DNA from: a virus
Strand: one strand, 5' to 3'
Length of the DNA: 31,535 nt
IMG/VR virus record: IMGVR_UViG_3300037584_002990
Span: 1-31,535 of that record
Below are positions 1 to 31,535 of this stretch, one piece after another; the stretch's first letter is position 1, and each line of letters begins with the position of its first letter. A program made the position numbers and the translations under genes. The notes under the pieces are model-generated. The model had not been told where the DNA came from. It saw nothing but the letters and a program-made list of their open reading frames with translations, and did not search any database.

Positions 1-3000
1 ACAGTTCCATCACCACTTGATAAAGTAGGTACTCCTAATGCACAAACTGATGATGAATCTCCAGCATCTACAGACTCGTATTGTGTTGCACCACTACAAT
101 CAGTATAACTAAAGTTACCAACTGAAACTGAACCTCCCTCTAAATCCCATTCATTACAACCACCTGGCGTAGGTGTTGGTGTTGGAGTAGGAGTAGGAGT
201 AGGAGTGGGGTTAGTAGCTATACAAGTATCACAATCTGGGTAAACATTAGTATAGTCATTAGCGTTTACAGTTGAACTAGTTTCATCTATCTCGTAACAT
301 CTACCGTCAGCCATTAACACTATATCACCCGGTGCGTTTCCACTAGCATCTGCTACTCTAACATTAATATAGTTAGCACTACCTTGTCCTGGACACATTG
401 TAACAGTATAATAATTAAATGCAAAGGTTGGTGTCGGTGTTGGCGGAGGTGTAGGCGTTGGGCCAACCGGAGTAACTGTTGGTGTCGGTGTTACAGTCGG
501 ACTACAACTTACTCCTGTGTCACTTGCACTACCACCACTTATTGTAGGTGTTGTTCCGGTTAATACACACACGTCAACATCAAAATCTCCTGGCAATATT
601 CCTGTTTGTGTGTTTCCATTACAGTCTGTATATGAGTAATTACAACCACCGCTTCCACTTGGACAAGTCAATGTCCACTCAGTACAAGAAGGTGTTGGCG
701 TAGGTGTTGGAGTCGCAGTTGGAACAGGCGTAACAGGCGTTGCAGTTGGAACAGGCGTAGGCGTTACAGTTGGTGTAGGTGTAGGTGTAGCAGATGCACA
801 TAAAGAACAATCTGTATAAGTTTCTACTATATCTACTGTACTAGTTGAACCTGTTACAGAAGGACTTTCATAACAAACACCACTATGCTTTACAACAGCA
901 GCAAATATACCTCCTGATGGCAATCTAAATACTTGAGTGCTTCCACCTCCACACTGAGTATATTCTCTATAGTCATAAACAATAGGTGTCGGAGTCACAG
1001 TTGGTGTCGGAGTCACAGTTGGTGTCGGAGTCACAGTCGGAGTCGGAGTCACAGTTGGTGTCGGAGTCACAGTTGGAACTGGAGTTGGGGTCGGTGTTGG
1101 TGTGCCAGTAGATCTATAATCCCATATTAAATATAAAATACTTCCGTTTGATGGCATTATAAAATCTGCCGAATAAATTGAAGGAGCACCAACAGTAGAT
1201 ATCGGTGTTGCGTCAATTGCTAAAGAAAGTAAACTTGTAATATCTGTTACGTTATTTTGATAGAATGTGTTTGTTCTTAAATATTTTAATCTGTCTACTG
1301 AGGGGTCAAATACAAAATCATCAAAATTAATTTTGTTTGAATAAATAGTCACAGTAGATCCGTCAACTGGGAAAACTCCGCTACCTTGCGAGCCTGAAAA
1401 CAACTGGTATTGTGATACAGCAAAGGAAGAAGATGTGCTTGTAAATTCTACTAAATTGGATTCTGTAGGTGAAACAGTCACACCGTCAGTCCAACCAAAT
1501 TCATTATGTATAAATTGTCCAGCTTCAACTGGATCAGTTACACAAATGTTATATATGTTTAAAGCGTTTGCTCTTGGACAACTTACATTTATTTGAATTG
1601 TATCATTTTGGTTTGAATTTGAGCTAACAACTATTGTCACCTCTTGTACATTTGGAACATTTTTATTAAATGTAAAACTACCCGAAGCCTTGACAGAGCC
1701 TGAAGTATATGTTACTCCTTTATAAATAGCGTTTATTGTATAAGCAGTTTGAGATTGAGACCCCTCTGTAATTAGCTGAACTCCCGACTCGTCAGTCATT
1801 AAAACATTTGTTTCGCTTTCAATATCTTGTTCTCCTTCTTTTGGAATTACAAAACTTACTGTTACAAGCCCTGTCTGCTGAGTAACATCTACACAATAAA
1901 CAAAGTCCTGATTAGCTATTACTGTTATATCTTTAGTAACACCACACGCTAAACAAACTGGTATTTCAGGTTTTAATATTGTATTTGAAGTTAATACATA
2001 CTCGTCCATATAAGGGTCATAACCCCCTAATTTTTGAGTGGTAAATGCTTCAGTAAATAAATCTCTAAACCAGCTTCTCATACCAGTTTCAGATATAACT
2101 ATAAGTCTTTCATCTGAGGCTGACCCACCTAGTAGTTGAAGTACCGCTCCTCTTTTTACATCAGTAAAATATTTGTTTTCTCCCCAAGCCACGAAGCTTT
2201 CTGGGTTGTTACTAATACCATAGTTCTCAATACGTGCTATTTGATTTCCTAAAATTTCTGGGACTGAAGCAACTAAACCTCCTCCAGTTGAGTCAGATAT
2301 AATATTTTTGGAAGCCAGAACGTATGATATTTTATCTTCTTGTAAAACAAGTATATCGGTTCTTCTGCCAAATAATATTTCAATATCTCCATAACTTTCT
2401 TCTAATGGTTTAAAGTTAGCTAAACCTAAATTAAATTCATTTAATTTATTGACATTAGTTTCATCATTATATACACCGCTATAGGTTAAATCAGCAAACC
2501 TATTAGCTTCTTTATATTCTACGTTAGAAGTTGTAAATACTCTGTTACCTAAATTAAAAGATTTACCATTTAAAGAGTCTCTTACTTTATAACTTTCTAC
2601 ACCATTTCCAAACGCAAAACAATTAAAAAATTTAGTATCAACCACACCAGCAACTCCTGCAGTTATATCTTGATTAGTTATGTTCCCGCTATGATTACCA
2701 TTTGAATCAATAGAAAATGATTCATCGTTTTCAAACCAAACATCAGGCAGTGCTTCAGCTGGCTCTGTTTCAAATACAACAACTGAATCTCTTCTAAAAA
2801 CAGTAAATGTAATTTCAACACGAGATCTATATCTGCTTGATGAACCAGCATTATTACAGGCTTCAGTACCGCTCACTAATAAAGAATATGTGTTATCCGT
2901 CCCATTTTCATAAAACCTATAATAGTTATTTAATAGTAAATCACTTGAGGTCGATGGGCTGTTTGATTGACCACCAAAAATGGTAAACATTGTAGAGTTA

Positions 3001-5657: not shown

Positions 5658-5658
5658 T

Positions 5659-18474: not shown

Positions 18475-21400
18475 TTATGAGTGAACGTATGTTCCACTTC
18501 CTGTATATGTTATTATAGTTTCACTTCCGCTTGTTGTTACTGTTGGTGAACCTGTTGTGCTTCCTGAGTAATCAGATGTGTTCATTCTAAGTATTACCAC
18601 ACCTGAACCTCCAGCACCTCCTTGAGATGAACCACCATCACCACCTGCACCACCTCCACCTCCTGTGTTTGTTGAACCTGCTGAACCACTAACATCTCCA
18701 GCACCAACAGCAGAATTACCTCCACCTCCAGTTCCTCCTGTAGTTGTACCTCCAATACCACCACCTGCACCACCACCTGCATAAGCAACTGCCGAACCTG
18801 TAATTGCAACACTCAATCCATCACCTCCTTCACCTGCTGCATCAGTATTTCCTGCTTCTGAAGCACCTCCACCTCCACCTCCGTGAAAGTTAGAGCCAGT
18901 ATATTGTCCTCCTGCAAAACCTTGATTAGCAGTTCCTGCCGCAGGATTATTTGAAGCATTTGATTCACCACCTGAACCACCACCTGAACCTCCAACTTCA
19001 GGAGCACCATTAACGTGATTATACATTCCTCCTCTACCACCACCTGTAGATGTTATTGTTGTGAGACCTGAAGCTGCAATAGAAGAATTTCCACCACTTG
19101 TCGGAGTTGTTGTGCTATATCCAACAGCTCCAGTTCCTCCTGCACCTACTGTAATTGTATAAGTTCCTGCTGCTAAAGTAATATCGCTTTCTGCAGATGA
19201 ACCCCCACCAGATGTTAAACCGTAAGATGTTCTTAATCCTCCAGCACCAGCACCTCCACCATCAGATGCTCCAGCACCACCACCACCTGCTACTACAAGA
19301 TAGCCCATATATCCAGATGCAATAGGATATTGCGCTGGGTTTTCTTTAAAAGCCATGTAGATGTAAGTTTTTCCGCTTTCATTTGCTGAAGTAGCGCTTC
19401 CTAAAGTAAATCCATCAGAGTCAAAAGATGTAAGACCTGAATTCACCCCCTCAGCATTAGCACCGTTAGGATATAGAACCTTTGTTGCTCCTCTAGCAGT
19501 ATCATATAATTCCCAGCTATCCACTCCGTCAGTTTCTTTTAATAATACCCAGTTTGGAGAAAATCCTAATCCCGTAATTGCTTGAGTGCTGCTATTTCCA
19601 GTATAACTTCCCATCTTGCTAAACCCTGGTGTGGATTTAAAACAATAAGCTACGTAAGTTCTTCCGCTTGTATTAGCATTTCCAAAAGTTTGATTTAAAG
19701 TAAAATTCGTGGCATTTGAATAAAACCAATTTGAAAACGTGTCAACACTGTTTGAGAGATTTAATGTTAAATAATCACTATTACCTATTGTTTCATAATA
19801 ATTTATCCAGTTTGTCGAGAATGTATTCATACATTTTATAATTACAGCATCCGGCGCAGAGCTTAATCCATGACCTACGGTTGACCCCGCTGTAGAATTT
19901 CCTGTGTATGTAACTATGCTAAAACCTGCTGCTTGATTTGCAGACACTATAGATTGTATGTCTCCATCATTGTTTATAGCTGGAATAGGATTTGCTTTCC
20001 AACACCACGCTACCATATTACTTCCATTTTCATTTGTGTATGGGTCTTGCCCTACTGTAAATCCATCAGTATCAAAACTATTAAAATCATTACCGGTTGT
20101 GTTAAAATCAGCTGCATCTAAGTTCGTGTAGTTTCCAGGCACAAGCTCTGAACCTAACAATCTAACATTATCAAATTCCATGTGATCTCTTGCAGAACTT
20201 CTGTTTTTTATCCAAACCCAGCTTGGGCTAAACCCTAAACCGGTGATTGCTCTATTACTAGTAGCGTTACCCGTATATAATTTGTTTGCAAAGCTATCAG
20301 CTAAAGTTGGCGCAGCTGTTGGGTCTGAAGCAAATGCTATATATAAAAACTCATCTCCATTTTGATTCCAAGAATTGTCATCATTAGAAATTTTAAATCC
20401 AGTGCTTAAAAAATCAACTGCATCACCTGTAACGTTGTCCTCAGCATTATTTAAATTTGGAAATAAAGTTCTTTGCCTGTGATTTAATGGGTTTCTTTTA
20501 TTATCAACCATTCTCCAGTTTGCTGTCGAATTTGTTTTTTTTACTATTAGCAACGCTGGCTCAAATCCTGTTACTACTAATGGGCCGTCTGGAACTCCAT
20601 TACCAGTATATGAGCCAATTTTAGAGTAGGATGCTATTGAAGTAAAAGCATAAACAATATAATCACTACCACTATTGTTTTGGTTATTAGCACTTGAACT
20701 TCCATTTAAAAAGCCAAAAGTTGTGCTGCTCATATTAGCTATATCAACACTACCATTCGTTCCTCCATTATTAGCCACAAAACCAGTATTTGCATTTAAA
20801 AAACCTACAGTATTATTTGATGTTAAATAAGTATTCCAGGCTCCACCACCTGTTCCACCACTATCAAGTTGTTTAAAAATAGTTAACTCAGGAATTGAAC
20901 CTAATCCATGCCCCACAGTTGCACTTGCAGAACCATTCCCTGTATATTTTACAATACTAAAACCTGCCTTTGTGTTGGCTTGTACTGTACTTGTAATTGT
21001 TCCATCTGTATTGCTGCTTGTAGTTCCTCCGTTTGCTTTCCAACACCAAGCTACATAAGTATTTGTATTATTATTAACAACAGCATTATTTCCAATCGAA
21101 AATCCATCTGCATCAAAAGATGTTATAAAAGTAGAATTAGTTAATTGAGCACCTGTGCCTATATATACGGGATGAGTAACTCCTCTTGTGCTGTCTGTTA
21201 TAGCATGGTCATAAGTTACATTTCTTGCTTTTATCCAAACAAAATCCGGCTGGAATCCAACCCCTGTTATCGATTGAGCAGTACCATTGCCTGTATAAGT
21301 AACCGTATTAAAATGCTCACTAGGGGTTGGGGGTATGTCTTGATCACTTAAAGTTCTCCATTTTATTCCATCCCAAAATTCTATAGTATTGCTATCCGTA

Positions 21401-21528
21401 TTATATCTCCATTCACCCGTACTTGGTGATGCAGGTCTTTGAGCTTCAGTACCCGAAGGTAATCTTAAAGCGCTATCAAGACTGCCAATGTCAAATAAAT
21501 CCGGATTTGTAATTTTTGTTGTTGCCAT
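18475..21528 (-). CDS. Large tail-fibre/adhesin with six related repeats and a polyglycine C-terminus
   Basis: A 1017-aa protein. Residues 20-60 hold the fibre-cap pattern LPSGTEAQRPASPSTGEWRY followed by NTIEFWDGIKWRTL. Residues about 75-740 contain roughly six diverged units of 90-110 aa, each with a YTGNG start, a GxGFxPxxVWIK-like strand, a SFDSDGFTLG-like turn and a Y(V/I)AxCWKA or IYMAFKE-like end. From about residue 742 (YLVVAGGGGAGASDGGGAGA) the protein is Gly/Ser/Thr-rich with repeated GGGG runs, ending in a TTSGSETIITYTGSGTYVHS module shared with the next gene upstream. Polyglycine helices of this kind form receptor-binding tips in T-even-type adhesins (gp38-like), so a host-binding role is inferred. 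Codons are AT-rich with many GGT/GGA Gly codons. Confidence 0.82.
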   Translation of the reverse strand: MATTKITNPDLFDIGSLDSALRLPSGTEAQRPASPSTGEWRYNTDSNTIEFWDGIKWRTLSDQDIPPTPSEHFNTVTYTGNGTAQSITGVGFQPDFVWIKARNVTYDHAITDSTRGVTHPVYIGTGAQLTNSTFITSFDADGFSIGNNAVVNNNTNTYVAWCWKANGGTTSSNTDGTITSTVQANTKAGFSIVKYTGNGSASATVGHGLGSIPELTIFKQLDSGGTGGGAWNTYLTSNNTVGFLNANTGFVANNGGTNGSVDIANMSSTTFGFLNGSSSANNQNNSGSDYIVYAFTSIASYSKIGSYTGNGVPDGPLVVTGFEPALLIVKKTNSTANWRMVDNKRNPLNHRQRTLFPNLNNAEDNVTGDAVDFLSTGFKISNDDNSWNQNGDEFLYIAFASDPTAAPTLADSFANKLYTGNATSNRAITGLGFSPSWVWIKNRSSARDHMEFDNVRLLGSELVPGNYTNLDAADFNTTGNDFNSFDTDGFTVGQDPYTNENGSNMVAWCWKANPIPAINNDGDIQSIVSANQAAGFSIVTYTGNSTAGSTVGHGLSSAPDAVIIKCMNTFSTNWINYYETIGNSDYLTLNLSNSVDTFSNWFYSNATNFTLNQTFGNANTSGRTYVAYCFKSTPGFSKMGSYTGNSSTQAITGLGFSPNWVLLKETDGVDSWELYDTARGATKVLYPNGANAEGVNSGLTSFDSDGFTLGSATSANESGKTYIYMAFKENPAQYPIASGYMGYLVVAGGGGAGASDGGGAGAGGLRTSYGLTSGGGSSAESDITLAAGTYTITVGAGGTGAVGYSTTTPTSGGNSSIAASGLTTITSTGGGRGGMYNHVNGAPEVGGSGGGSGGESNASNNPAAGTANQGFAGGQYTGSNFHGGGGGGASEAGNTDAAGEGGDGLSVAITGSAVAYAGGGAGGGIGGTTTGGTGGGGNSAVGAGDVSGSAGSTNTGGGGGAGGDGGSSQGGAGGSGVVILRMNTSDYSGSTTGSPTVTTSGSETIITYTGSGTYVHS

Positions 21529-21531
21529 AGT

Positions 21532-22962
21532 TTATGTTTGCACGTATGTTCCACTTCCTGTAAAAGTCATTATTGTATCTGTTCCATCTGTTGTTACAGT
21601 TGGACTTCCTGTTACTGTTCCTGTATAACTTGCTGTAGGTATTCTTAATATTATTACACCGCTTCCACCTGCTCCGCAAATAGCTCCATTTATAGCATAA
21701 TTTCCTGAACCTCCCCCACCTGAACCAGTGTTTGCTGCTCCATCTGTTCCCGCTACACCTGAATAAGTTCCTGTACCATATCCACCAGTTCCACCACCAC
21801 CAGTTCCACCTGTACCGTGACAGGAAGTCGTATTAGCCATTACTCCTCCACCACCACCTCCAGCGTAATCAACTGCAGCTCCTGTAATTGAGTTAGAAAG
21901 ACCTGGGCCTCCATTAGCTTGACTGTTTGAGCCTCCTGCACCACCACCACCTGCTCCTGTCCAAGAACCACACCAGCTTGATGACATATTTCCTGCACCG
22001 TACCCTTGACATGCCGTTCCAGAACCTGCATTTTGGTATACACCTCCTCCACCACCACCTCCAGAACCACCGTCTGAATTACCCCAGTTTGGACCGTTTC
22101 CTCCACCACCACCTACTGTTGTTATAGTAGTAGCAGCGTAAGCTAGTGTTGAGGGTTGACCACCTGCTCCGTATTTTGCTCCACTTCCACAACAACTACC
22201 ACCTGCTCCAACAGTAACCGTAAAAGTATTTGCTTCTAAATTAATAGAGCTTTCAGCCGAACAACCACCACCAGATGTTGTTCCAAATGTAGTACGAAAA
22301 CCACCTGCACCACCTCCACCAGATGGATAATATCCATTAGTTGTAGTCCAAGATTTTCCGCCTGAACCTCCTCCTGCTATAATTACATAATTTAATTGCG
22401 GAGGGGGAGTGTTGGTTAATGTTTTCCATTCTGTACCATTGTAATATTCCATACATGATTGAGAAGCCTCAGAACTATCTGATGTGTTATTTCTTATTTT
22501 CCCTGTCGTATCGGATCCTTCTCTAACATCTGTACCACTAGGCATTTTAAGACCGCTATCTGAATAAGTATAAACTAAATTATCTTGTCCACCCATATAA
22601 CCATGAATTTTACAGTAATAACTAATTGTTCCAAAGTCTGCACTAACTGTTAGCGTTACCGTTCCAGAGTAAAAGGTATATGTGTTTCCGTCTGGACCTG
22701 TAGCCGTTCCTTCATCTACAGTTCCTGTATAAGATATTTGTGAAGTTTTTCCGTTATTTATAAAAGCAATAGGATGTCCTGCGGGAACTCCAGTAAGAGT
22801 TATTGTGCCAATCTTAGCACCAAATTTTCCATACACTCCATTAAAGTTGTACTGATTACCACCAGCATTAATAACTGTCACAGCATTAGTAGAGTCCAGT
22901 ATATAATCTGGATTACCCGGGTTTAAATCTACTACTTCTCCTATTAATTTTGTTGTTGCCAT
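21532..22962 (-). CDS. Glycine-rich tail-fibre/adhesin with N-terminal cupredoxin-like domain
   Basis: A 476-aa protein. Residues 18-135 form a beta-sandwich-like segment that ends in FGTISYYCKIHGYMGG (110-125). C117, H120 and M123, together with H63 in the upstream GHPIAFINNG, give the four ligands of a type I copper site with the C-x2-H-x2-M spacing of amicyanin. Residues 136-190 carry the fibre-cap pattern (LKMPSGTDVREGSD, then CMEYYNGTEWKTL). From about 197 the protein is polyglycine-rich (YVIIAGGGSGG, repeated GGGG blocks with some Cys). It ends in GTDTIMTFTGSGTYVQT, as in the 1017-aa adhesin. It sits between the 1017-aa adhesin and the 223-aa fibre-associated protein. A structural fibre is likely; copper binding is inferred from ligand pattern only. 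Confidence 0.8.
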   Translation of the reverse strand: MATTKLIGEVVDLNPGNPDYILDSTNAVTVINAGGNQYNFNGVYGKFGAKIGTITLTGVPAGHPIAFINNGKTSQISYTGTVDEGTATGPDGNTYTFYSGTVTLTVSADFGTISYYCKIHGYMGGQDNLVYTYSDSGLKMPSGTDVREGSDTTGKIRNNTSDSSEASQSCMEYYNGTEWKTLTNTPPPQLNYVIIAGGGSGGKSWTTTNGYYPSGGGGAGGFRTTFGTTSGGGCSAESSINLEANTFTVTVGAGGSCCGSGAKYGAGGQPSTLAYAATTITTVGGGGGNGPNWGNSDGGSGGGGGGGVYQNAGSGTACQGYGAGNMSSSWCGSWTGAGGGGAGGSNSQANGGPGLSNSITGAAVDYAGGGGGGVMANTTSCHGTGGTGGGGTGGYGTGTYSGVAGTDGAANTGSGGGGSGNYAINGAICGAGGSGVIILRIPTASYTGTVTGSPTVTTDGTDTIMTFTGSGTYVQT

Positions 22963-22963
22963 G

Positions 22964-23635
22964 TTACTCTTCTAATATCCAATTTTTTGTTTCTTCATCC
23001 CAAAGATACGAATTTCCGTCTTCAGGTATTGCCACGGGAGATTCCCATAAACAAGTATCCTCATTTAAAGTCCAAGACTCAAATGGCTGCGGCGCATAAA
23101 ACGCATCTCTTACAGGGTCGTAAGTATACCCTACCCCTGCATAATTTTTTCTAAAAGGTGTGCCACCGTTTTGGTGAACACCACCAATTGTATTGTAAGA
23201 AGTTCTTTTGCATAGTCCGCCTTTTCCATAATACCCTTCCCAGTAAATTGTATTGTCTATTTCAACTGGCGGAATCGGACCTTTTTCTTCAATTTTTTGT
23301 TTTGCTTCAGCTTCTATTTCTGCAACTTCTTCTGGTGTTTTACCTACCCTTGTGTGGTATAAATCTATCATTTCTTGCTCAAATTCTTCATCCCTACCAA
23401 CCTCATATTTTATTTCAGATACTCCAGTTATAACACTAGTTACTACGCAAAGCTGGTTATCTATTTCTTGCTGCTTTGCATCTATCTCTTCTTGCTTTGC
23501 TTCAATCGAAGCTTTATCTTCTTCAGTTGGCTCTTCAATAGAAGTAAGATTACTCATCTCATTCCATAATTCGTAGAGCTCTTCTCTTAGAGTTTCTGTT
23601 GTGTGGTCGTTATTTAAAAATGCGTAATGTGCCAT
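22964..23635 (-). CDS. Fibre-associated protein with inserted coiled coil (paralogue of 18080-18442)
   Basis: A 223-aa protein. It starts MAHYAFLNNDHTTETLREEL and ends with RKNYAGVGYTYDPVRDAFYA, then APQPFESW and YLWDEETKNWILEE, matching the 120-aa paralogue at both ends. Between them, residues about 15-70 and 88-120 form very charged Glu/Lys/Gln-rich helices (EEDKASIEAKQEEIDAKQQE). The central TIYWEGYYGKGGLCKRTSYN replaces the paralogue's NWVQTSYN segment. It is placed between two glycine-rich fibre genes with gaps of 1 nt on each side. The coiled coil may let it trimerise with, or chaperone, the adjacent fibre. No known enzymatic function. Confidence 0.7.
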   Translation of the reverse strand: MAHYAFLNNDHTTETLREELYELWNEMSNLTSIEEPTEEDKASIEAKQEEIDAKQQEIDNQLCVVTSVITGVSEIKYEVGRDEEFEQEMIDLYHTRVGKTPEEVAEIEAEAKQKIEEKGPIPPVEIDNTIYWEGYYGKGGLCKRTSYNTIGGVHQNGGTPFRKNYAGVGYTYDPVRDAFYAPQPFESWTLNEDTCLWESPVAIPEDGNSYLWDEETKNWILEE

Positions 23636-23636
23636 A

Positions 23637-24620
23637 TTAACTAAAACTTATTGTATCTGTTCCTGCCGTGAACGTTGTTACTTTATCACTACCATCCGTA
23701 GCTGTTGAACTAGTTAAACCTGCGCCTACTGTTATGGTATAAGTGTTAGGGTATCTAAGTATTACAATACCGGATGCTCCAGGTCCGTTAAATCTACCTG
23801 CATTACCTCCACCACCTGTATTTGCTGCGGGTGCAGTACCTGCATTACCTCCTTGATTACCACCAGCTCCACCAGGCCCATAGCTTACGGCTGAACCAGT
23901 TATACTAACACTTAAAGCACTTCCACCACCAGTGCCCCCAGCATTCGCTCCAGTTCCACCTCCTCCTCCAGAAGTAATGTTTCCACCATTCGCTCCATCA
24001 AAACCTTGATAAGCTGACCCACTTCCACCTATAAAAGGTCCGAGAGACATACCTGCACCACCTCCACATCCACCGTTTGGGCCGTTGGTTGCGTCTCCAC
24101 CACCACCACCTCCGCCTAAGGAAGTAATTGCGCCAACTACCGAGTCGCCTCCAGTCCCCCCATTTACCCCACTACCTGTATATGAAGCGGCTGTACCTGC
24201 AGCACCTACAGTAACCGTGTATGATGTTCCACTTTTAAACCCTAATTTTGCTTCAGCGGGACTTCCTCCTCCTGCTCCAGGCCCTCCAGATGCAGAACCA
24301 AAAGAAGTTCGCAGACCGCCTCCTCCGCCTCCGCCTCCTAGATTATCTCTACTACCCCTACCACTAGAACCACTTCCTCCTCCTCCTCCTAGAACTAAAA
24401 AATCTGCAAGGAAAGTTACTGTAGGGTTTGCGGTTGTTTCCGCTAATCTTTTCCATTCTGTTCCATTGTAAAACTCTAATCTTGAATCTGTAGTGTTTAA
24501 TCTTGCATCCCCAGCTGTTGGTGATCCCGGTCTTTGAGCTTTCGTTCCCTTAGCCCACACTAGACCTCCAGTGTTACCACTCATGTCAATTACGTTTGTA
24601 GTTACTTTGTTTGTTGCCAT
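23637..24620 (-). CDS. Glycine-rich tail-fibre/adhesin protein
   Basis: A 327-aa protein. N-terminal cap: MATNKVTTNVIDMSGNTGGL, then KGTKAQRPGSPTAGDARLNT and LEFYNGTEWKRL (residues 50-60), the same cap as in the other two glycine-rich proteins. From about residue 73 it is made of Gly-rich runs (FLVLGGGGGSGSSGRGSR, further GGGGGG blocks) broken by a TSYTVTVGAAGTA strand. It ends in a short beta module (NTYTITVGAGLTSSTATDGS, then FTAGTDTISFS). It lacks the repeats of the 1017-aa protein. The glycine blocks suggest polyglycine-II packing, as in T-even adhesin tips. It starts 11 nt after the preceding 221-aa fibre gene. Confidence 0.78.
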   Translation of the reverse strand: MATNKVTTNVIDMSGNTGGLVWAKGTKAQRPGSPTAGDARLNTTDSRLEFYNGTEWKRLAETTANPTVTFLADFLVLGGGGGSGSSGRGSRDNLGGGGGGGGLRTSFGSASGGPGAGGGSPAEAKLGFKSGTSYTVTVGAAGTAASYTGSGVNGGTGGDSVVGAITSLGGGGGGGDATNGPNGGCGGGAGMSLGPFIGGSGSAYQGFDGANGGNITSGGGGGTGANAGGTGGGSALSVSITGSAVSYGPGGAGGNQGGNAGTAPAANTGGGGNAGRFNGPGASGIVILRYPNTYTITVGAGLTSSTATDGSDKVTTFTAGTDTISFS

Positions 24621-25460: not shown

Positions 25461-25931
25461 TTACCAGAGCGCTAAAATATTATCAGCACTAGTTCCTGTA
25501 TTAAACACCTTTTTTACTTGAACAGGGAAAAATTGACCTGACGATATGTTTGAGAAAGTTACCTCATCTCCAGCAACCGTAGTTACTTTTATATTACCTG
25601 CAGTTCCAATAAACAAAACTGCTCCTTCTTCGCTTTCTCCATATATTTCATAATTCTTACCGCTAGCTGCAAATATATTTGCAGAAACTGTAAGCGTATT
25701 ATTATCCTCTACACCAATAACTACAGCTTGAGTGCCATCGGTTGTGTTGACAACTATCATATTAAGTTTTACTCCACTTGTTAAAAAAGTTGCTGCCGCA
25801 TCTATTAGTTGTGTTGTACTACCAGTTGTAGTAGTGCCTGATGGGCCAGCAATACCTATATTAGGTATGTCTGTGTTGTCGCTTTTATTGACTTGCCATG
25901 CTCTTCCGGCTTGTAATTTTTGATATGCCAT
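25461..25931 (-). CDS. Beta-rich virion protein, unknown family
   Basis: A 156-aa protein. It opens MAYQKLQAGRAWQVNKSDNT and continues as Thr/Val/Gly-rich strands (STTQLIDAAATFLTSGVKLN, VVIGVEDNNTLTVSANIFAA), ending VQVKKVFNTGTSADNILALW. There is no Cys, signal peptide or enzyme motif. Proteins of this appearance occur as decoration, head-fibre or baseplate-like virion components. It lies between the microgene train and the fibre genes (3-nt gap to the gene upstream). A structural role is inferred from composition and position. Confidence 0.65.
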   Translation of the reverse strand: MAYQKLQAGRAWQVNKSDNTDIPNIGIAGPSGTTTTGSTTQLIDAAATFLTSGVKLNMIVVNTTDGTQAVVIGVEDNNTLTVSANIFAASGKNYEIYGESEEGAVLFIGTAGNIKVTTVAGDEVTFSNISSGQFFPVQVKKVFNTGTSADNILALW

Positions 25932-25934
25932 TAT

Positions 25935-26090
25935 TTATTTATTATAAGGAAATATGCGATTAAGCGAATCACGTCTTTGATCGCACCCGCAGTCCTTGTT
26001 AAACTTATCTGCTACTATGTCTACTGCTTTTTTGATTCCAGTAAACTTAGTAAATTTTTCTATGTCGTCTCCTAGTCCTCTTGATTTCAT
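25935..26090 (-). CDS. Small Cys/Gly-containing protein, 51 aa
   Basis: ATG at 26090 overlaps the stop of the upstream gene (ATGA), which favours this start over in-frame ATGs at 26099 and 26105. The product begins MKSRGLGDDIEKFTKFTGIK and ends DCGCDQRRDSLNRIFPYNK. The pair of Cys in DCGCD and the FTGIKK motif look like a small conserved phage protein type I recall from marine phages, function unknown. Two Cys alone would need a partner to bind zinc. Confidence 0.65.
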   Translation of the reverse strand: MKSRGLGDDIEKFTKFTGIKKAVDIVADKFNKDCGCDQRRDSLNRIFPYNK

Positions 26091-26248
26091 TTTATACATA
26101 TACATTCTTCTTTTTCACAATTTTTCATCTTAAATGATATTGCAAAGATAATCTTATTCCAATTACATTTTATATTATGTGTCAACTTTCCCCACCATCT
26201 TGCTATTGCATGAGACGCTTTTATGAGCCAAGCTCCTAATTTTTTCAT
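26087..26248 (-). CDS. Small amphipathic protein with C-terminal Cys cluster, 53 aa
   Basis: ATG at 26248, TGA at 26087-26089. The sequence opens MKKLGAWLIKASHAIARWWG, has a short hydrophobic stretch NKIIFAISF (residues 31-39), and ends KNCEKEECICIK with three Cys in nine residues. It starts 6 nt after the stop of the preceding gene and overlaps the next by four bases. The Trp-rich amphipathic N-terminus suggests membrane or nucleic-acid contact. No family recognised. Confidence 0.55.
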   Translation of the reverse strand: MKKLGAWLIKASHAIARWWGKLTHNIKCNWNKIIFAISFKMKNCEKEECICIK

Positions 26249-26254
26249 ATCGTT

Positions 26255-26443
26255 TTATTTTTTACACCCAAAGTTGTTTGCATAATTTGCCATAGCCACA
26301 ACTCTTTTAGTGTATTTATTTTTACTTTTCATAACCGCAGAAGCGGCAGCGCAAGTAGACTTTCCAGGCATATTCTTTTTTACCCAGTTTGTAAACTTGC
26401 CCTGATTTTTCTCCTTAATCATCGGAAATGGTTTCTTTGCCAT
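26255..26443 (-). CDS. Small basic protein, 62 aa, conserved phage type
   Basis: MAKKPFPMIKEKNQGKFTNW starts a Lys-rich protein with a NMPGKSTCAAASAVMKSKNK core and ANYANNFGCKK end. The pattern of KFT, a Ser/Cys/Ala run, KNKY, then NYANNFG looks like a family of small phage and large-virus proteins that I cannot name. Two Cys are spaced widely. It begins in the stop codon of the previous gene (TAATG). Confidence 0.7.
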   Translation of the reverse strand: MAKKPFPMIKEKNQGKFTNWVKKNMPGKSTCAAASAVMKSKNKYTKRVVAMANYANNFGCKK

Positions 26444-26670
26444 TACTTTTTAATTAATGATGATAAGTGTGCGTGAACGCTTCCTTTTTCTCCGTGAGAC
26501 TCGTAAGCCATGGAATGATCGCCACCATATTTGTGACCGTACATTTTTTTAGACATAGCTTCGCTTTCATCTCTTCTTGCTTTATAAGACTGAGATTTTT
26601 TGCCGTGCTTTGCTCCTAATGAGTCATCCAACTTATCGTTGTAACCTTGTGAGTATTTTACTGTAGGCAT
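26443..26670 (-). CDS. Small charged His-rich protein, 75 aa
   Basis: MPTVKYSQGYNDKLDDSLGA begins a strongly charged protein with a KARRDESEAMSKKMYGHKYG centre and an ESHGEKGSVHAHLSSLIKK end. Histidines are frequent (GDHSM, ESHGE, VHAH), so metal binding is conceivable. It has its own TATCTTTG box about 31 nt upstream, splitting the microgene train in two. Unknown function. Confidence 0.65.
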   Translation of the reverse strand: MPTVKYSQGYNDKLDDSLGAKHGKKSQSYKARRDESEAMSKKMYGHKYGGDHSMAYESHGEKGSVHAHLSSLIKK

Positions 26671-26701
26671 GATTTATAAATTTTAATTAAACAATTTTAC
26701 A

Positions 26702-26709
26702 CAAAGATA
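26702..26709 (-). promoter_or_regulatory. TATCTTTG -7-type box inside the microgene train
   Basis: The minus strand reads TATCTTTG directly after the stop of the 96-aa gene and about 31 nt before the ATG at 26670, within the only sizeable gap (39 nt) of this gene train. Confidence 0.55.
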
Positions 26710-27000
26710 CTAATATTTTCCTTGTCTATTTTTTGGTGAAGATTTTGTAGAACCACCTGATCCAGACCATAATGTTCTGCATGCCCAATATCTTGCAGTA
26801 AGCTTTGATTTTGCTTGAGAACATTTATGTCTAGCTCTAAAACTTTTTCTTGCAGCAGCAGAATAATTATGACCATAACCAGTAGCTCCAAAGTGTATAA
26901 GTTTTTCCTGGCCATTAGCACACGCCTTTACCATTTTCTTTTTACCTGCTCTGTCTGATTTAGTCGGCTTGTTACAAGCCATTTTACTTTTATCTGCCAT
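26710..27000 (-). CDS. Small basic Cys-containing protein with conserved KSFRARHKC...YWAC motif
   Basis: A 96-aa protein, strongly basic. Residues 30-78 contain GQEKLIHFGATGYGHNYSAA, then ARKSFRARHKCSQAKSKLTA and RYWACRTLW. The motif (I/L)xFG, then RKSFRARHxC, then K(L/T)xARYWxC is one I recall from virion or core-associated proteins of marine phages. The Cys/His residues (C9, C27, H57-x-C59, C73) could bind zinc. Its ATG lies in the stop of the gene before it (TAATG). The basic character plus possible zinc site suggests DNA or RNA contact, perhaps packaged in the head; this is inference. Confidence 0.72.
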   Translation of the reverse strand: MADKSKMACNKPTKSDRAGKKKMVKACANGQEKLIHFGATGYGHNYSAAARKSFRARHKCSQAKSKLTARYWACRTLWSGSGGSTKSSPKNRQGKY

Positions 27001-27242
27001 TATGCGTTTCTTACTTTTGCTGCTTTTGTATTTGATACTACTGTCTTTCCTTTAGCTCCTTCTCTTTTTTTCTTACGAGCTGTTTGAGCTAATTGTCTTT
27101 TAGAAAGTCTTAATGCTTTTTTTCTCGGAAGACATCGGTCTGGATTTTTTTTATCTTTACTAGTCCCGCACTTGCCTTTGATTTTACCATCCGTACCTAT
27201 GCGAACCCAGTCTTGTTTTACCCAGTTTTTTAGAGCTCCCAT
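27000..27242 (-). CDS. Small Lys/Arg-rich protein, conserved phage family
   Basis: An 80-aa protein with about a third Lys/Arg. The first half has NWVKQDWVRIGTDGKIKGKC followed by GTSKDKKNPDRCLPRKKALR; the second half has LAQTARKKKREGAKGKTVVS with an NTKAAKV end. The WVRIGTDGKIKGKCG, NPDRCLPRKKA and KGK-x-V-x-NTKxAKV blocks form a family I recall from marine phages and some large algal viruses; the function is unknown. Two Cys (C25 and C37) are conserved in position. It shares one base with each neighbour (TAATG at both ends). Confidence 0.75.
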   Translation of the reverse strand: MGALKNWVKQDWVRIGTDGKIKGKCGTSKDKKNPDRCLPRKKALRLSKRQLAQTARKKKREGAKGKTVVSNTKAAKVRNA

Positions 27243-27361
27243 TACTTTTTCATTTTAGACATTGACTTTAACATTCTGTCAATCTTTGCAGCTTGACCTT
27301 TGTGCATAGCCGATGCTTTTTTTAGCTCTCTGGATATTTGTTGTAGTTTTTTCTTTTCCAT
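27242..27361 (-). CDS. 39-aa helical microprotein
   Basis: ATG at 27361, TAA at 27242-27244. The sequence starts MEKKKLQQISRELKKASAMH and continues as one charged amphipathic helix (AAKIDRMLKSMSKMKK). Both ends overlap neighbours by one base (TGATG before, TAATG after). These junctions, not length, make it credible. Function unknown. Confidence 0.65.
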   Translation of the reverse strand: MEKKKLQQISRELKKASAMHKGQAAKIDRMLKSMSKMKK

Positions 27362-27495
27362 CACTTTTTCATTTTAGCACCAGCTATCTTATCTGCATAA
27401 GTTATACCTGGATTGTTATCCATGCCAGCTTTTACGCTTAGCATACCAAAATTTGTTCTTTTACCCTTACGGGCTTTTTTATTCATTTTACTCAT
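27361..27495 (-). CDS. 44-aa basic microprotein
   Basis: ATG at 27495, TGA at 27361-27363. The product reads MSKMNKKARKGKRTNFGMLS and then VKAGMDNNPGITYADKIAGA before a KMKK end. The NFGMLSVKAGxDNNP and ADKIAGA stretch looks conserved in related phages. It overlaps the upstream gene by four bases (ATGA) and the downstream one by one. Basic, Gly-rich, no known role. Confidence 0.65.
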   Translation of the reverse strand: MSKMNKKARKGKRTNFGMLSVKAGMDNNPGITYADKIAGAKMKK

Positions 27496-27647
27496 TTCTT
27501 ACTTTTTTTTGCGTAGTTAGGATCTTTACAATATTTACTCGCTGCCATATTTGCATAAGCAGACGGATAAGTATCAAAAGTTCTTTTAGCCCAAGCAATA
27601 CCTGCTGGACATATTTTGTTTTTTCTTCCTGTTTTTTTCTTTGCCAT
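27492..27647 (-). CDS. 51-aa basic microprotein with two Cys
   Basis: ATG at 27647, TGA at 27492-27494. The sequence opens MAKKKTGRKNKICPAGIAWA, continues KRTFDTYPSAYANMAASKYC and ends DPNYAKKSKK. The ICPAGIAWAKRTF, AYANMAAxKYCKDP pattern appears conserved in small phage proteins, function unknown. Two Cys, 13 and 40, might pair or hold a metal. One-base overlap upstream and four-base overlap downstream. Confidence 0.68.
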   Translation of the reverse strand: MAKKKTGRKNKICPAGIAWAKRTFDTYPSAYANMAASKYCKDPNYAKKSKK

Positions 27648-27958
27648 TACTTCTTATGTTTATCTATAATAGTTTGTATGCTGTCTAATGAAACATTTAT
27701 CTTCATTGTTAATCCAGCTTCAAATCTTGCTATCGGTTTGTTCTCTAAATATACTACGATTGTGGGAACGCTTTTGATAGACCTTTTGAGATTATCACTT
27801 TGTTCTTCTACATACGCATATTGAACTTTAGTATTTTTTAATCTTTCAAGTCTGTTGTAAGCATTGCTTTCATTCCATTTGTAATTGAAATGAACTGTAG
27901 TAATCTCTTGACCGTAACTAAAAACACTGAACAGTAATGCTAAAATTAATAATCTCAT
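27647..27958 (-). CDS. Secreted thioredoxin-fold protein lacking the CXXC motif
   Basis: A 103-aa protein. Residues 1-17 (MRLLILALLFSVFSYGQ) form a signal peptide with cleavage likely before EITT, typical of Bacteroidota. The mature part, TVHFNYKWNESNAYNRLERL (21-40), has the position of the thioredoxin active-site loop but no Cys. A KVQYAYVEEQSDNL strand-helix and KSVPTIVVYLENKPIARFEA (62-81) with the expected cis-Pro P65 then complete the thioredoxin pattern. So it should be periplasmic, with a thioredoxin fold but no redox centre: a binding or chaperone role rather than disulfide exchange. It overlaps both neighbours by one base. The fold is assigned by eye; a Cys-free cargo-binding protein is the best reading. 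Confidence 0.65.
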   Translation of the reverse strand: MRLLILALLFSVFSYGQEITTVHFNYKWNESNAYNRLERLKNTKVQYAYVEEQSDNLKRSIKSVPTIVVYLENKPIARFEAGLTMKINVSLDSIQTIIDKHKK

Positions 27959-28251
27959 TAGTCCTTGGTTATAATTTCAAATAATTTCTGGTCAATATCT
28001 TCTAGCTTCTCACCATTCTCCTGCACCTTCTCTTGTGTATTGATTATGGTTTCTCTAATAAGCTGATCTTTCAGGTCATACTCAGTTCGAGACACTTCTG
28101 GTTCAGGTAGTTTTTTAGCCAGCTCGATATCTTCTTGAAGCGAGTACCACATACCCACAACTGTAACCACAACTGCACCTAAAGTAATTAGGTTCTCAAC
28201 ACTAATGTTGAATTTTTTCTTTTTTAATTTTTCAATATCTAGCTCGCTCAT
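27958..28251 (-). CDS. Small membrane protein with C-terminal coiled coil
   Basis: A 97-aa protein. N-terminal basic stretch KLKKKKF, one membrane segment about residues 18-37 (VENLITLGAVVVTVVGMWYS), then charged helices (residues 40-95, with RTEYDLKDQLIRETIINTQE and LEDIDQKLFEII). This N-in, single-TM, periplasmic coiled-coil layout is like an inner-membrane spanin or a virion-injection helper. No lipobox partner lies adjacent; a small lipoprotein is encoded at 29502-29711 and might be the outer partner, but this is speculative. It overlaps the thioredoxin-like gene by one base (TAATG). Confidence 0.6.
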   Translation of the reverse strand: MSELDIEKLKKKKFNISVENLITLGAVVVTVVGMWYSLQEDIELAKKLPEPEVSRTEYDLKDQLIRETIINTQEKVQENGEKLEDIDQKLFEIITKD

Positions 28252-28253
28252 TT

Positions 28254-28400
28254 TTAGTAACCCATTTTTTTCTCCATCCCATAACCAGGGTTGTAGCTGA
28301 TTTTACCTTTTTTCATTTTGGCAAACGAGTCTGCTTGAGCTTTTCCTACTGCGTTGTATGGAAACACTCTTTTTATGTTTTTACTTTTTACTGTTGGCAT
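28254..28400 (-). CDS. 48-aa basic microprotein
   Basis: ATG at 28400, TAA at 28254-28256. It reads MPTVKSKNIKRVFPYNAVGK, then AQADSFAKMKKGKISYNPGY and GMEKKMGY. Basic with no Cys and no known domain. The start lies 20 nt inside the gene before, and its stop is 2 nt before the next start. Confidence 0.6.
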   Translation of the reverse strand: MPTVKSKNIKRVFPYNAVGKAQADSFAKMKKGKISYNPGYGMEKKMGY

Positions 28401-28500
28401 AATTACTTTTTTTATATATTAACATATTAGGGAAATCTTTAGTGCTTCCCTTTGGGCACTTGTAATTGTATTTGTTTTTATCTAATGAGCTTTTATACAT
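28381..28500 (-). CDS. 39-aa basic microprotein
   Basis: ATG at 28500 sits in the stop of the 68-aa gene (TAATG); TAA at 28381-28383. It reads MYKSSLDKNKYNYKCPKGST, then KDFPNMLIYKKSNYANSKK. It overlaps the following gene by 20 nt. Its short length makes it uncertain, but the stop-start overlap matches the pattern of the whole train. Confidence 0.5.
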   Translation of the reverse strand: MYKSSLDKNKYNYKCPKGSTKDFPNMLIYKKSNYANSKK

Positions 28501-28706
28501 TACGCTCCTCTTTTTTTCTTCTTTGGCTTTACTATGACACTGTCAGACATTGTTCTTTTGTGTGGAGGAACCATAGTTCCTGTATCTTTTCTGTATGGAA
28601 ATCCATCAGCGTTTACTCCATAGATACTGTCTAGCTTTTTGATCATTGCGTTACGAGCTGGTATGCTATCCATGGCTTTTTTTAAATGTCCTTTTTTGTG
28701 TGGCAT
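28500..28706 (-). CDS. Small basic protein, 68 aa, first of the microgene train
   Basis: MPHKKGHLKKAMDSIPARNA is followed by KKLDSIYGVNADGFPYRKDT, then TMVPPHKRTMSDSVIVKPKK and a KKRGA end. It is strongly basic and His/Lys-rich at the start with no recognised domain. A TATCTTTG box 16 nt upstream suggests it opens the transcript of the microgene train. It is divergent to the plus-strand regulator-like gene. Confidence 0.65.
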   Translation of the reverse strand: MPHKKGHLKKAMDSIPARNAMIKKLDSIYGVNADGFPYRKDTGTMVPPHKRTMSDSVIVKPKKKKRGA

Positions 28707-28722
28707 AATATTATTATTTTTA

Positions 28723-28730
28723 CAAAGATA
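28723..28730 (-). promoter_or_regulatory. TATCTTTG -7-type box at the head of the microgene train
   Basis: The minus strand reads TATCTTTG 16 nt before the ATG at 28706, in the 38-nt gap between divergent genes. No matching plus-strand element is obvious for the gene at 28745. Confidence 0.6.
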
Positions 28731-28744
28731 CTAAATCTAATAAA

Positions 28745-29188
28745 ATGAAATTAAGAGTAAACGACTGCCTAAAATACTGGCGAGTGATAAGATATTTTGT
28801 AAAGCGTAAACATGGATTGACTACATGTGATCTTGAAATGCTTTTGTTTTTATACAGCGAAGATATATTTTCTAAAAAAAAATTTGTAAGCTATGCAAGT
28901 TTACTTAGGTGGGATAGAAGAAGATTCCAAAGACTTGTTGACGAAGGGTGGATAGAGCTGTTTAGAGAGAGAAACAAACAAATAAAAAGTCTTTACTCAA
29001 TATCTTTCAAAACAAAAAGACTTTGTGATTCTATTTATAAAAAATTATCTGGAGAAGAAATACCTACTTCACTTGGCTCAAACCCGATGTTTGCTAAAAA
29101 CGTTAGCTATACAGACAAGGTTTACAAAAATATGATAATAGAGATGAATGATTTTATAAAACAACAACGACGTCTTTCTCCTGAATAA
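28745..29188 (+). CDS. Winged-helix (MarR-like) DNA-binding protein, probable phage regulator
   Basis: A 147-aa protein and the only plus-strand gene. Residues 10-70 (KYWRVIRYFVKRKHGLTTCD, then LEMLLFLYSEDIFSKKKFVS, then SLLRWDRRRFQRLVDEGWIE) read as helix-turn-helix plus wing, like MarR-type proteins. Residues 72-100 form a wing and linker (FRERNKQIKSLYSISFKTKR). The C-terminal helices include YTDKVYKNMIIEMNDFIKQQ. It is divergent from the microgene train and convergent with groES, overlapping that gene's 3' end by 35 nt. A regulator is the natural reading, since it sits between two divergent or convergent operons; its target is unknown. Confidence 0.7.
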   Translation: MKLRVNDCLKYWRVIRYFVKRKHGLTTCDLEMLLFLYSEDIFSKKKFVSYASLLRWDRRRFQRLVDEGWIELFRERNKQIKSLYSISFKTKRLCDSIYKKLSGEEIPTSLGSNPMFAKNVSYTDKVYKNMIIEMNDFIKQQRRLSPE

Positions 29189-29711: not shown

Positions 29712-30442
29712 TTTTTATTATAATATTTTTTAAGTTTATCCATATATGAACCTGTAAATTTATCTATTATCCAAACCCAACCTCCATAAGAGGAATTTTG
29801 TACTGCATTTAGTTTGGGTAATTTTTTTTCTGCACAATATGCTACAGCTAACACATCACCTTTTTTACACATATACTTTAGAGGTTTGTTTAAATCGTAA
29901 GAAAAGTTTATGTTGATGTTTGTTAAAGTTTCCTCTATTAAAGGTAGTACACCTGGCATAATAGTAAGAGGTAAACCTGGGTTATGATACATTGGCTGCA
30001 TGAAAATTAATTTAATTAAACCTGATCCTTTAGAACTTCTTATGTTTGTTGAAATTGACAACTGTATATTCCCTGTCTTTCCACCATTAAAGCCCATCAT
30101 TTGAGTTACTAAATTATGCTTTGTGACTTTTATCAAGTGTTCATTAGATGAATCAAACTTCCAATCATCCCCACCTTTAGATTCAAAGTACCAATCACAT
30201 GGAGAGGTAATAACATAACTATATTTAAAAACATCCACAAAAGAGGGGCAGTATTTAAGATTACTTACGTGTTCGTTTTTTCCTTTATACATTTGCGTTC
30301 TGACTTTCCTCCACCATGCAGGTTGATTTTCTAACGTAGGAGTAATTATATCTTTAATAAAATTATCAATTTGGTCAGGTATAATAGTTGGTGGTACTAC
30401 TAGTTCTATGCTTTTTTCTTTTTGTTTTTTAAAAAGTTTCAT
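29708..30442 (-). CDS. Unknown protein, marine-phage type, in the chaperonin operon
   Basis: A 244-aa protein. It has a basic N-terminus (MKLFKKQKEKSIELVVPPTI), then ENQPAWWRKVRTQMYKGKN, LKYCPSFVDVFKYSYVITSP and CDWYFESKGGDDWKFDS (residues 80-98), and a beta-rich second half (GNIQLSISTNIRSSKGSGLI, MQPMYHNPGLPLTIMPGV). The pattern CPS, an aromatic-rich strand, then a C/W-D-W pair resembles a family of unnamed proteins of marine phages, with no established function. It starts in the stop of groEL (ATGA overlap) and is followed by the lipoprotein (ATGA overlap), so it is translated with the chaperonin. It may be a folding client or adaptor; nothing in the sequence shows this. Confidence 0.55.
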   Translation of the reverse strand: MKLFKKQKEKSIELVVPPTIIPDQIDNFIKDIITPTLENQPAWWRKVRTQMYKGKNEHVSNLKYCPSFVDVFKYSYVITSPCDWYFESKGGDDWKFDSSNEHLIKVTKHNLVTQMMGFNGGKTGNIQLSISTNIRSSKGSGLIKLIFMQPMYHNPGLPLTIMPGVLPLIEETLTNININFSYDLNKPLKYMCKKGDVLAVAYCAEKKLPKLNAVQNSSYGGWVWIIDKFTGSYMDKLKKYYNKK

Positions 30443-31535
30443 TTACTCTCGTATGTTCTTGCCATTGTTACAATCGCATTAGTAGATAATATGGTCACTG
30501 CCACACTCACTGCATTTTGAAGTGCCTGCTTTGTTACCTTCATGGGGTCTATAATACCCATCTCAATCAAGTCACCTTCTTTCCCTGTCTTCACATCGAG
30601 GCCTATGTTTTTCTCATTGTACACTCTGGTATTTTTAATGCCTGCGTTTTCTTGAATTTGGTTGAGCGGTTCTTGAAGTGCTTCCCCCAAAATCGCCTTG
30701 GCGATTTTTTTGGTAGAATTTTTCCTCATTAACTTCAATCCTTCTTGGTACAATGCCAGTCCTGCCCCAGGGAGTATGCCTTCCTCGAGGGCACTACGGA
30801 CTGCGCACACTGCGTCATCAACTCTATCAAACAGTTCTTTTTGTTCTAGGTCGGTATTCCCGCCTACATAGATGACTCCGACTCCTCCGGTCAGGGATGC
30901 TATACGAGAGAGGATAAACTCCTTGTCCACTTTCTTCACTGTTATGGAATGAGCGTCCCAGAGTTGTGCTACCCTCTCCTCGATTAGCTTCTCGTTCACA
31001 TGAGAATCGTCTTTTAATATTATGCTAGAGTCCCTGCCTACGATTATTTTCTTTGCACGACCCAGGTCTTCAAAGTTCATAATGCTCATATCATCTCCAG
31101 TCTTTTCTGAAAAATAAGTAGCCCCTACTGACAGAGCTATGTCTTGCATCAGTTCATGTTGCTTATAGCCAAAGGAGGGTGGAATTATGGCACAAAGCTT
31201 CAAGCTGTTCTTCATCACATTCGCCGCTAGGGTGTTTATGACTTGTTGTGAACAAGGCGCTACTATTAATAATTTTTTTCCTTCATTGATAATTGGTTTC
31301 AATATATTCTCAATGACAAGTATGTTGTTGATCTCTGCATCAGAGACAAGAATATGCACATCCTCCATGATACACTCATCTTTCTTTTGGTTGTTTACAA
31401 ACAAAGGGGATGAGTACCCCCTGTCTATTTTTAAACCATTGGTAGTCTCAAAGCTGGTCTCTGACCCCTGGGATTTCTCCACCGTTACAATTCCGTTATC
31501 ACCCACCTGGCTATATGTGTCGGCTATTATTTTCC
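30439..31535 (-). CDS. groEL: GroEL-like chaperonin (Hsp60), 5' end outside window
   Basis: Partial; the frame enters at 31533 and ends at 30439, 365 codons plus stop. It aligns by eye with GroEL from about residue 155 to 525. Apical domain: DRGYSSPLFVNNQ (GroEL DRGYLSPYFI), NNILVIENILKPIINEGKKL, MQDIALSVGATYFSEKTG, then ERVAQLW. Intermediate and equatorial parts: SRIASLTGGVGVIYVGG, RVDDAVCAVRSALEEGILPG (D equivalent to catalytic D398), LNQIQENAG and EMGIIDPMKVTKQALQNAVS. It ends at VAVTILSTNAIVTMARTYES plus Lys without the GGM-repeat tail. The GGG loop near 414-416 reads GAG. Several sampled lines have 45-50% GC against 13-25% in sampled lines of the next gene. The next start overlaps its stop (ATGA). 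The family is certain; activity is not shown. Confidence 0.93.
   Translation of the reverse strand, partial: KIIADTYSQVGDNGIVTVEKSQGSETSFETTNGLKIDRGYSSPLFVNNQKKDECIMEDVHILVSDAEINNILVIENILKPIINEGKKLLIVAPCSQQVINTLAANVMKNSLKLCAIIPPSFGYKQHELMQDIALSVGATYFSEKTGDDMSIMNFEDLGRAKKIIVGRDSSIILKDDSHVNEKLIEERVAQLWDAHSITVKKVDKEFILSRIASLTGGVGVIYVGGNTDLEQKELFDRVDDAVCAVRSALEEGILPGAGLALYQEGLKLMRKNSTKKIAKAILGEALQEPLNQIQENAGIKNTRVYNEKNIGLDVKTGKEGDLIEMGIIDPMKVTKQALQNAVSVAVTILSTNAIVTMARTYESK

What the first reader, a model, noticed from the sequence alone, without database searches (positions are those of the whole stretch)
25935..28706. Train of about fourteen tiny, mostly basic genes joined by one-base stop-start overlaps
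In 2.8 kb the minus strand holds genes of 39-103 codons. Seven junctions use TAATG or TGATG (28500, 27958, 27647, 27361, 27242, 27000, 26443), and others use ATGA. Several (39, 39, 44, 48, 51 and 53 aa) are below usual annotation cutoffs. Many are Lys/Arg-rich with one to four Cys, as would suit proteins that coat or condense DNA, or that are injected. They look like coordinated, equimolar production by termination-reinitiation. A set of co-translated microproteins may be an undescribed virion or takeover cassette.
Basis: partly seen in the sequence, partly recalled or inferred. Interest (0 to 1): 0.65.

Follow-up and report, generated by a model that had tools for sequence, protein, structure and literature searches.

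The report
Late microprotein gene train, marine phage
A marine Bacteroidota-type phage packs fourteen tiny, mostly basic genes end to end in its late, particle-building half; three of them are widespread and two of those change more slowly than the phage's own GroEL, and indirect evidence suggests that they help build or fill the virus head.

Summary
In detail: 14 minus-strand ORFs, seven one-base TAATG/TGATG junctions at the stated coordinates, two ATGA. Thirteen of 14 have homologues under purifying selection. The phage is related to Flavobacterium elemo phages and Cellulophaga phi38:1. In the nearest complete relative the equivalent genes lie in the late arm, and the train's promoter-like TATCTTTG boxes belong to the class found before the portal gene, so early host takeover is unlikely. 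The core is F51, I80 and J96. F51 and J96 are more conserved than the phage's GroEL in every contig compared; F51-I80 also sit downstream of an unrelated capsid gene in another phage group. J96 is a divergent relative of Tlr6f/DUF5754, of unknown function; related domains are fused to prohead proteases between portal and capsid genes. A basic protein family found in sister trains was detected by MS/MS in phi40:1 virions. Best reading: a late cassette of head-assembly or head-interior microproteins made by coupled translation. Packaging, DNA binding and equimolar synthesis are not shown. D97 and E103 do not fit.

The parts
28500..28706 (-). A68, 68 aa, pI 10.4, first gene of the train
   Evidence: ORF; no homologue found; TAATG to B39
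28381..28500 (-). B39, 39 aa, pI 9.8, 1 Cys
   Evidence: 85% aa in L002 and L003, dN/dS 0.09 in L002
28254..28400 (-). C48, 48 aa basic
   Evidence: 21 loci, dN/dS 0.05-0.33
27958..28251 (-). D97, 97 aa, acidic, one likely membrane helix (by reading) plus coil-like tail; odd one out
   Evidence: 84% in L003, dN/dS 0.05; distant homologues elsewhere, also after the tail gene
27647..27958 (-). E103, 103 aa, signal-peptide-like N-terminus (by reading); odd one out
   Evidence: 68% in L003, dN/dS 0.16
27492..27647 (-). F51, 51 aa, core member (PSAYAN motif, phrog_27331)
   Evidence: 81-100% identity in 27 contigs, above GroEL in 27 of 27; at least 596 related stretches
27361..27495 (-). G44, 44 aa basic
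   Evidence: ATGA to F51; 9 loci, dN/dS 0.06-0.30
27242..27361 (-). H39, 39 aa basic
   Evidence: TGATG junction; 25 loci, dN/dS 0.13-0.28
27000..27242 (-). I80, 80 aa, pI 11.2, core member (phrog_23735; remote likeness to DUF5872)
   Evidence: at least 578 related stretches; HTVC homologues hit DUF5872 below cut-off
26710..27000 (-). J96, 96 aa, 4 Cys, core member; Tlr6f/DUF5754-related domain
   Evidence: phrog_7595, phrog_220; PF19058 0.0016; counterpart elemo64 2e-11
26443..26670 (-). K75, 75 aa, His/Lys-rich
   Evidence: 27 loci; dN/dS 0.06-0.33
26255..26443 (-). L62, 62 aa basic, 2 Cys
   Evidence: TAATG junction; 19 loci
26087..26248 (-). M53, 53 aa, amphipathic, 4 Cys
   Evidence: 7 loci; dN/dS 0.15 with L002
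25935..26090 (-). N51 (N56 with the longer start), CGCxxRRxxLNxxFPY motif
   Evidence: 38 loci; MW202828 homologue 2.7e-18
25461..25931 (-). O156, downstream boundary gene, tail-fibre-like
   Evidence: phrog_12296 1.5e-10; homologue elemo65
28723..28730 (-). promoter-like -7 box TATCTTTG before A68
   Evidence: TAWCTTTG: 12 on coding strand, 0 on other; 10 of 12 lie 8-60 nt before starts
26702..26709 (-). promoter-like -7 box TATCTTTG directly after the J96 stop, before K75
   Evidence: TAT[CA]TTTG kept at this spot in most sister contigs
28745..29188 (+). R147p, divergent gene at the upstream boundary ('repressor' in MW202828)
   Evidence: phi38:1 gp78 homologue 2.3e-10; 37 loci

Best explanation
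The train is a late cassette of a short-tailed phage of marine Bacteroidota, made by coupled translation from two late promoters, and most of its products are small basic proteins that work in building or filling the head. Shown here: 13 of 14 genes are conserved coding genes; the equivalent genes of the nearest complete relative lie in the late arm; the promoter-like boxes are of the class found before portal and other structural genes; F51-I80 recur beside an unrelated capsid gene; J96-type domains are fused to prohead proteases; a small basic protein family found in sister trains was detected by MS/MS in phi40:1 virions. Inferred: that the proteins enter the prohead, bind DNA or the inner capsid, and that ribosomes terminating at TAATG reinitiate on the next gene. 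D97 and E103 are passengers with membrane or envelope roles.
For: Coding and conservation. Late arm and promoters. Head context: F51 relative between scaffold and capsid genes in P-SCSP2; F51-I80 between capsid and head-closure genes in C75C1; an unrelated capsid gene 0.9-3.3 kb upstream of F51 in 62 contigs; J96 relative between Mu-F-like and capsid genes in KBS-S-2A and two small genes before the terminase small subunit in CRP-738. Fusion to Peptidase_S78_2 between portal and capsid genes. Virion MS/MS of gp80; gp80-type genes in trains of L033, L034, L069 and near that of L040. Coupling; PMC6728339.
Against: No peptide of any train protein of this phage is known; gp80-type genes are absent from this window; the MS/MS statement is a GenBank note, not read in the original paper. 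Late and head-adjacent position does not prove packaging. F51 is nearly invariant between phages with unrelated capsids, which fits a nucleic-acid or conserved host target better than a capsid-specific one. Structure models found no PDB match.
Confidence: 0.52

Rival explanations
1. Late, non-virion accessory proteins: assembly helpers, packaging co-factors, lysis or membrane factors, or proteins that act on the host late. They are made with the structural genes but do not enter the particle.
For: Late position as above; D97 and M53 look membrane-associated; GroEL-GroES directly upstream are assembly helpers in the same arm.
Against: gp80 MS/MS in virions; fusion of J96-type domains to a prohead protease, which works inside the prohead.
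Confidence: 0.24
2. A gene-exchange site without a shared function: small late genes are gained, lost and swapped at stop-start seams, and one-base overlaps are just the compact way to join genes in a host that does not use Shine-Dalgarno motifs.
For: F51 starts with a -1 overlap after 11 different upstream genes, I80 after 7; order and content vary; insertions of 150-350 aa genes; L002 has an unrelated protein in the J96 place; Bacteroidetes make little use of SD motifs.
Against: F51, I80 and J96 persist through the shuffling, F51 and J96 always more conserved than GroEL; F51-I80 stay adjacent in unrelated phages.
Confidence: 0.15
3. Early host-takeover cassette: small basic proteins that shut off or redirect host machinery.
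For: Many tiny genes of unknown function in a row, as in early regions of other phages (general knowledge).
Against: Late arm, late-type promoter boxes and structural-module context in several phage groups.
Confidence: 0.06
4. Spurious ORFs in A-rich DNA.
For: Very short, Lys-rich ORFs in AT-rich sequence; A68 has no homologue.
Against: dN/dS well below 1 in 13 genes and homologues in many contigs.
Confidence: 0.03

Closest known systems
Flavobacterium elemo phages and freshwater phage MW202828 (Elemovirus neighbourhood)
   Same: Homologous portal, capsid, GroEL-GroES, R147p, J96 and O156 genes; J96 and O156 neighbours in the same region
   Different: Only one to three train genes instead of fourteen; in elemo phages GroEL-GroES are inverted
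Cellulophaga phi38:1 / phi40:1 (Pervagoviridae, Callevirus)
   Same: Capsid 38.6% identical; gp78 is the R147p homologue; gp80 is a small, very basic protein with experimental MS/MS as virion protein
   Different: No F51, I80 or J96 homologue found; gp80 has no counterpart in this window
Tlr6f / DUF5754 (PF19058)
   Same: J96 counterpart elemo64 scores 44 bits, E 2e-11; family reported in Polinton-like viruses, giant viruses and phages, function unknown (PMC4642659, PMC12220804)
   Different: J96 itself is below the curated cut-off (18.9 against 27.4 bits)
DUF5872 (PF19197)
   Same: I80 homologues HTVC027P gp50 and HTVC023P gp52 hit it weakly (E 5e-4 and 2e-3)
   Different: Below cut-off; I80 itself has no match
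Peptidase_S78_2 (XkdF-type) prohead proteases of Aeromonas and Vibrio phages
   Same: Carry a J96-type domain before the protease, between portal and capsid genes
   Different: J96 is a stand-alone domain without a protease part

Membership tests
Tlr6f / DUF5754 | Match to PF19058 above the curated cut-off | tested here: inconclusive
   J96 18.9 bits against 27.4; homologue elemo64 44 bits, J96-elemo64 phmmer 6e-17. Member by link, not by direct score.
DUF5872 | Match to PF19197 above the curated cut-off | tested here: not met
   I80 no match at E 1; best homologue 21.0 against 27.5 bits
Virion (internal head) protein | Present in purified particles | not testable with these tools
   Only a family from sister trains (gp80) has an MS/MS note in a related phage
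Virion (internal head) protein | Encoded with late structural genes and their promoter class | tested here: met
   Position and promoter-like boxes; expression itself not measured
Translationally coupled operon | Overlapping stop and start codons kept between co-directed genes | tested here: met
Translationally coupled operon | Downstream translation depends on upstream translation | not testable with these tools
   needs a reporter assay or ribosome profiling
Early host-takeover region | Located in the early arm, transcribed first | tested here: not met
   Equivalent genes of the complete relative MW202828 lie in the late arm; timing not measured

The most novel reading that the evidence does not exclude
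F51, I80 and J96 are a portable, near-invariant head-interior kit that works with capsids of unrelated phages and shares its parts (Tlr6f/DUF5754, DUF5872-like) with giant viruses and Polinton-like viruses, so that a common way of handling packaged DNA or the prohead interior, spanning phages and eukaryotic viruses, has been overlooked because its proteins are so small.
Probability: 0.17. Interest if true: 0.82.

Novelty: new variant of a known kind. Interest (0 to 1): 0.5.

Why it matters
Tlr6f/DUF5754 has been known since at least 2013-2015 as a small protein shared by Polinton-like viruses, giant viruses and phages, with no function assigned. The fusion of its relatives to prohead proteases, and a train of late microproteins with J96 at its core in phages whose closest kin have cultivable hosts, make its role directly testable. 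The train also shows that proteins of 51-96 codons, often missed by annotation, can be among the best conserved genes of a phage, above its GroEL.

Tried and rejected
Pfam and PHROGs on the window proteins gave little beyond J96, F51 and I80. AlphaFold models of J96 (pLDDT 75, beta hairpin plus two helices) and I80 (pLDDT 81) had no usable PDB match by Foldseek or VIA-align, and sequence profiles found no credible solved relative. Paper searches for virion proteomics of pelagiphages and for phage microprotein cassettes found nothing useful; a 2026 methylation paper on phi38:1 (PMC13288928) does not list gp80 by that number. Early takeover was rejected on position. The Vibrio GR11A 'Peptidase_S78_2' label on a J96-like protein was not supported by Pfam for that short protein, so it is not used as evidence.

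Full report
What is there. The minus strand from 28706 to 25935 holds fourteen short genes. Two further junctions are ATGA, one is a 20-base overlap, and three are short gaps, one of which (39 bases between J96 and K75) holds a promoter-like box. Thirteen of the fourteen proteins have a calculated pI above 9.3; D97 is acidic and looks like a membrane protein, and E103 has a signal-peptide-like start, so the set is not uniform.

Are they genes. Searching the train proteins in 165 loci found relatives for all but A68. Codon comparisons with the nearest contigs give dN/dS mostly between 0.01 and 0.33, also for the 39-codon genes; many dS values are saturated and were not used. About thirty contigs carry a train at the same place, between GroEL-GroES with a divergent R147p gene and a tail-fibre-like gene.

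Which phage. The portal and capsid proteins are most like MW202828 (a complete freshwater phage genome), Flavobacterium elemo phages, Maribacter phage Panino and Cellulophaga phi38:1. The window is a 31.5 kb virus record, probably a fragment. A Bacteroidota host is inferred from these relatives, from TANNTTTG boxes, and from a 98% F51 match in an Aureispira bin (it may be phage DNA in the bin).

Late, not early. MW202828 is annotated in two divergent arms: replication genes on one strand, and GroEL-GroES, the J96 and N56 homologues, tail, terminase, portal and capsid genes on the other. TANNTTTG boxes stand 8-60 nt before 11 late-arm boxes-to-start pairs and 2 early ones there. In the window, TAWCTTTG occurs 12 times on the coding strand and never on the other, and 10 of the 12 lie just before gene starts, among them A68, K75, the portal gene and the gene before the capsid gene. 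The box before K75 is kept in most sister contigs directly after the J96 stop codon. TANNTTTG is also the general Bacteroidota promoter box (own knowledge), so this argues for shared transcription with the structural genes rather than for a special late factor.

The conserved core. F51, I80 and J96 stand out. In 27 contigs F51 has a median identity of 86% to the window against 64% for the GroEL fragment, and is higher in all 27; J96 is higher in 23 of 23; I80 in 20 of 27. Contigs were found by their F51 or I80 match, so these figures are biased upward for F51 and I80, but not for J96. In a second phage group the pair lies 0.9-3.3 kb downstream of a major capsid gene (phrog_371) in 62 contigs, and that capsid protein has no detectable similarity to the one in the window.

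Links to the head. Relatives of J96 form the part before the Peptidase_S78_2 domain of prohead proteases in Aeromonas 2L372D and Vibrio qdvp001, encoded between portal and capsid genes. A stand-alone relative lies between a Mu-F-like head gene and the capsid gene in cyanophage KBS-S-2A. An F51 relative lies between scaffold and capsid genes in Prochlorococcus phage P-SCSP2, and F51-I80 between capsid and head-closure genes in phage C75C1. The small basic protein gp80 of phi40:1 is annotated as found by experimental MS/MS in virions, and its family occurs in the trains of L033, L034 and L069 and near that of L040. None of this shows that the proteins of this window are packaged.

Tlr6f. J96 matches DUF5754 below the cut-off, but its counterpart in the elemo phages, at the corresponding place, matches it clearly. 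DUF5754 is the Tlr6f family, described as conserved in Polinton-like viruses, several virophages, giant viruses and some phages, without known function (PMC4642659; PMC12220804). The protease fusion is, as far as these searches show, a first lead to its role.

Junctions. One-base overlaps make up 65 of 294 train junctions against 4 of 120 downstream in the same contigs. F51 begins with such an overlap after eleven different upstream genes and I80 after seven (that gene caller did not penalise -1 and -4 overlaps, whereas the count treats all overlaps alike). So the seam is kept while the neighbour changes. Overlapping pairs are translationally coupled in the prokaryotes tested, and Bacteroidetes make hardly any use of Shine-Dalgarno motifs (PMC6728339), which makes coupling at TAATG plausible here. 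Equimolar output is not shown.

Verdict. A real, conserved, late microprotein train; most likely head-assembly or head-interior proteins (about 0.5), with late non-virion accessory roles as the main rival. New variant of a known kind.

Noticed in passing
L004:6269-6349, L008:4476-4556, L011:2499-2579, L018:3728-3808, L069:7096-7173: Sister trains hold a 25-26 aa ORF with a CDGSH-like iron-sulphur motif (MKYQPMCQCGNTSNPDGHCDGSHLNK); Pfam gives only a weak zf-CDGSH hit (E 0.54).
   Followed up: partly
L117, L135, L038, L041, L168: In the other phage group several small proteins of one phage share a C-terminal tag like ARGCGxVMxNRRKxT / RGMGAATxGG; a possible targeting tag. The window copies lack it.
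   Followed up: partly
L002:6529-6783: An unrelated 84 aa Cys-containing basic protein (SYCARSLG...RKRWKC) takes the place of J96 at the same TAATG seam.
   Followed up: no
L022: GroEL-GroES sit inside the train rather than before it.
   Followed up: no
L174:3752-4675, L175:2767-3774: PHROGs calls phrog_1530 DNA methyltransferase, but its matches here carry a Peptidase_S78_2 domain; the label looks wrong.
   Followed up: partly
window 18475-24620: Several glycine-rich, tail-fibre-like proteins in a row.
   Followed up: no
window 30439-31506: GroEL gene reaching the end of the contig, matched only from position 239 of the Pfam model on, so its start is probably cut off.
   Followed up: no
window 1-5658: No closed ORF of 90 aa or more; probably part of a giant gene like the 11.6 kb ORF of MW202828.
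   Followed up: no
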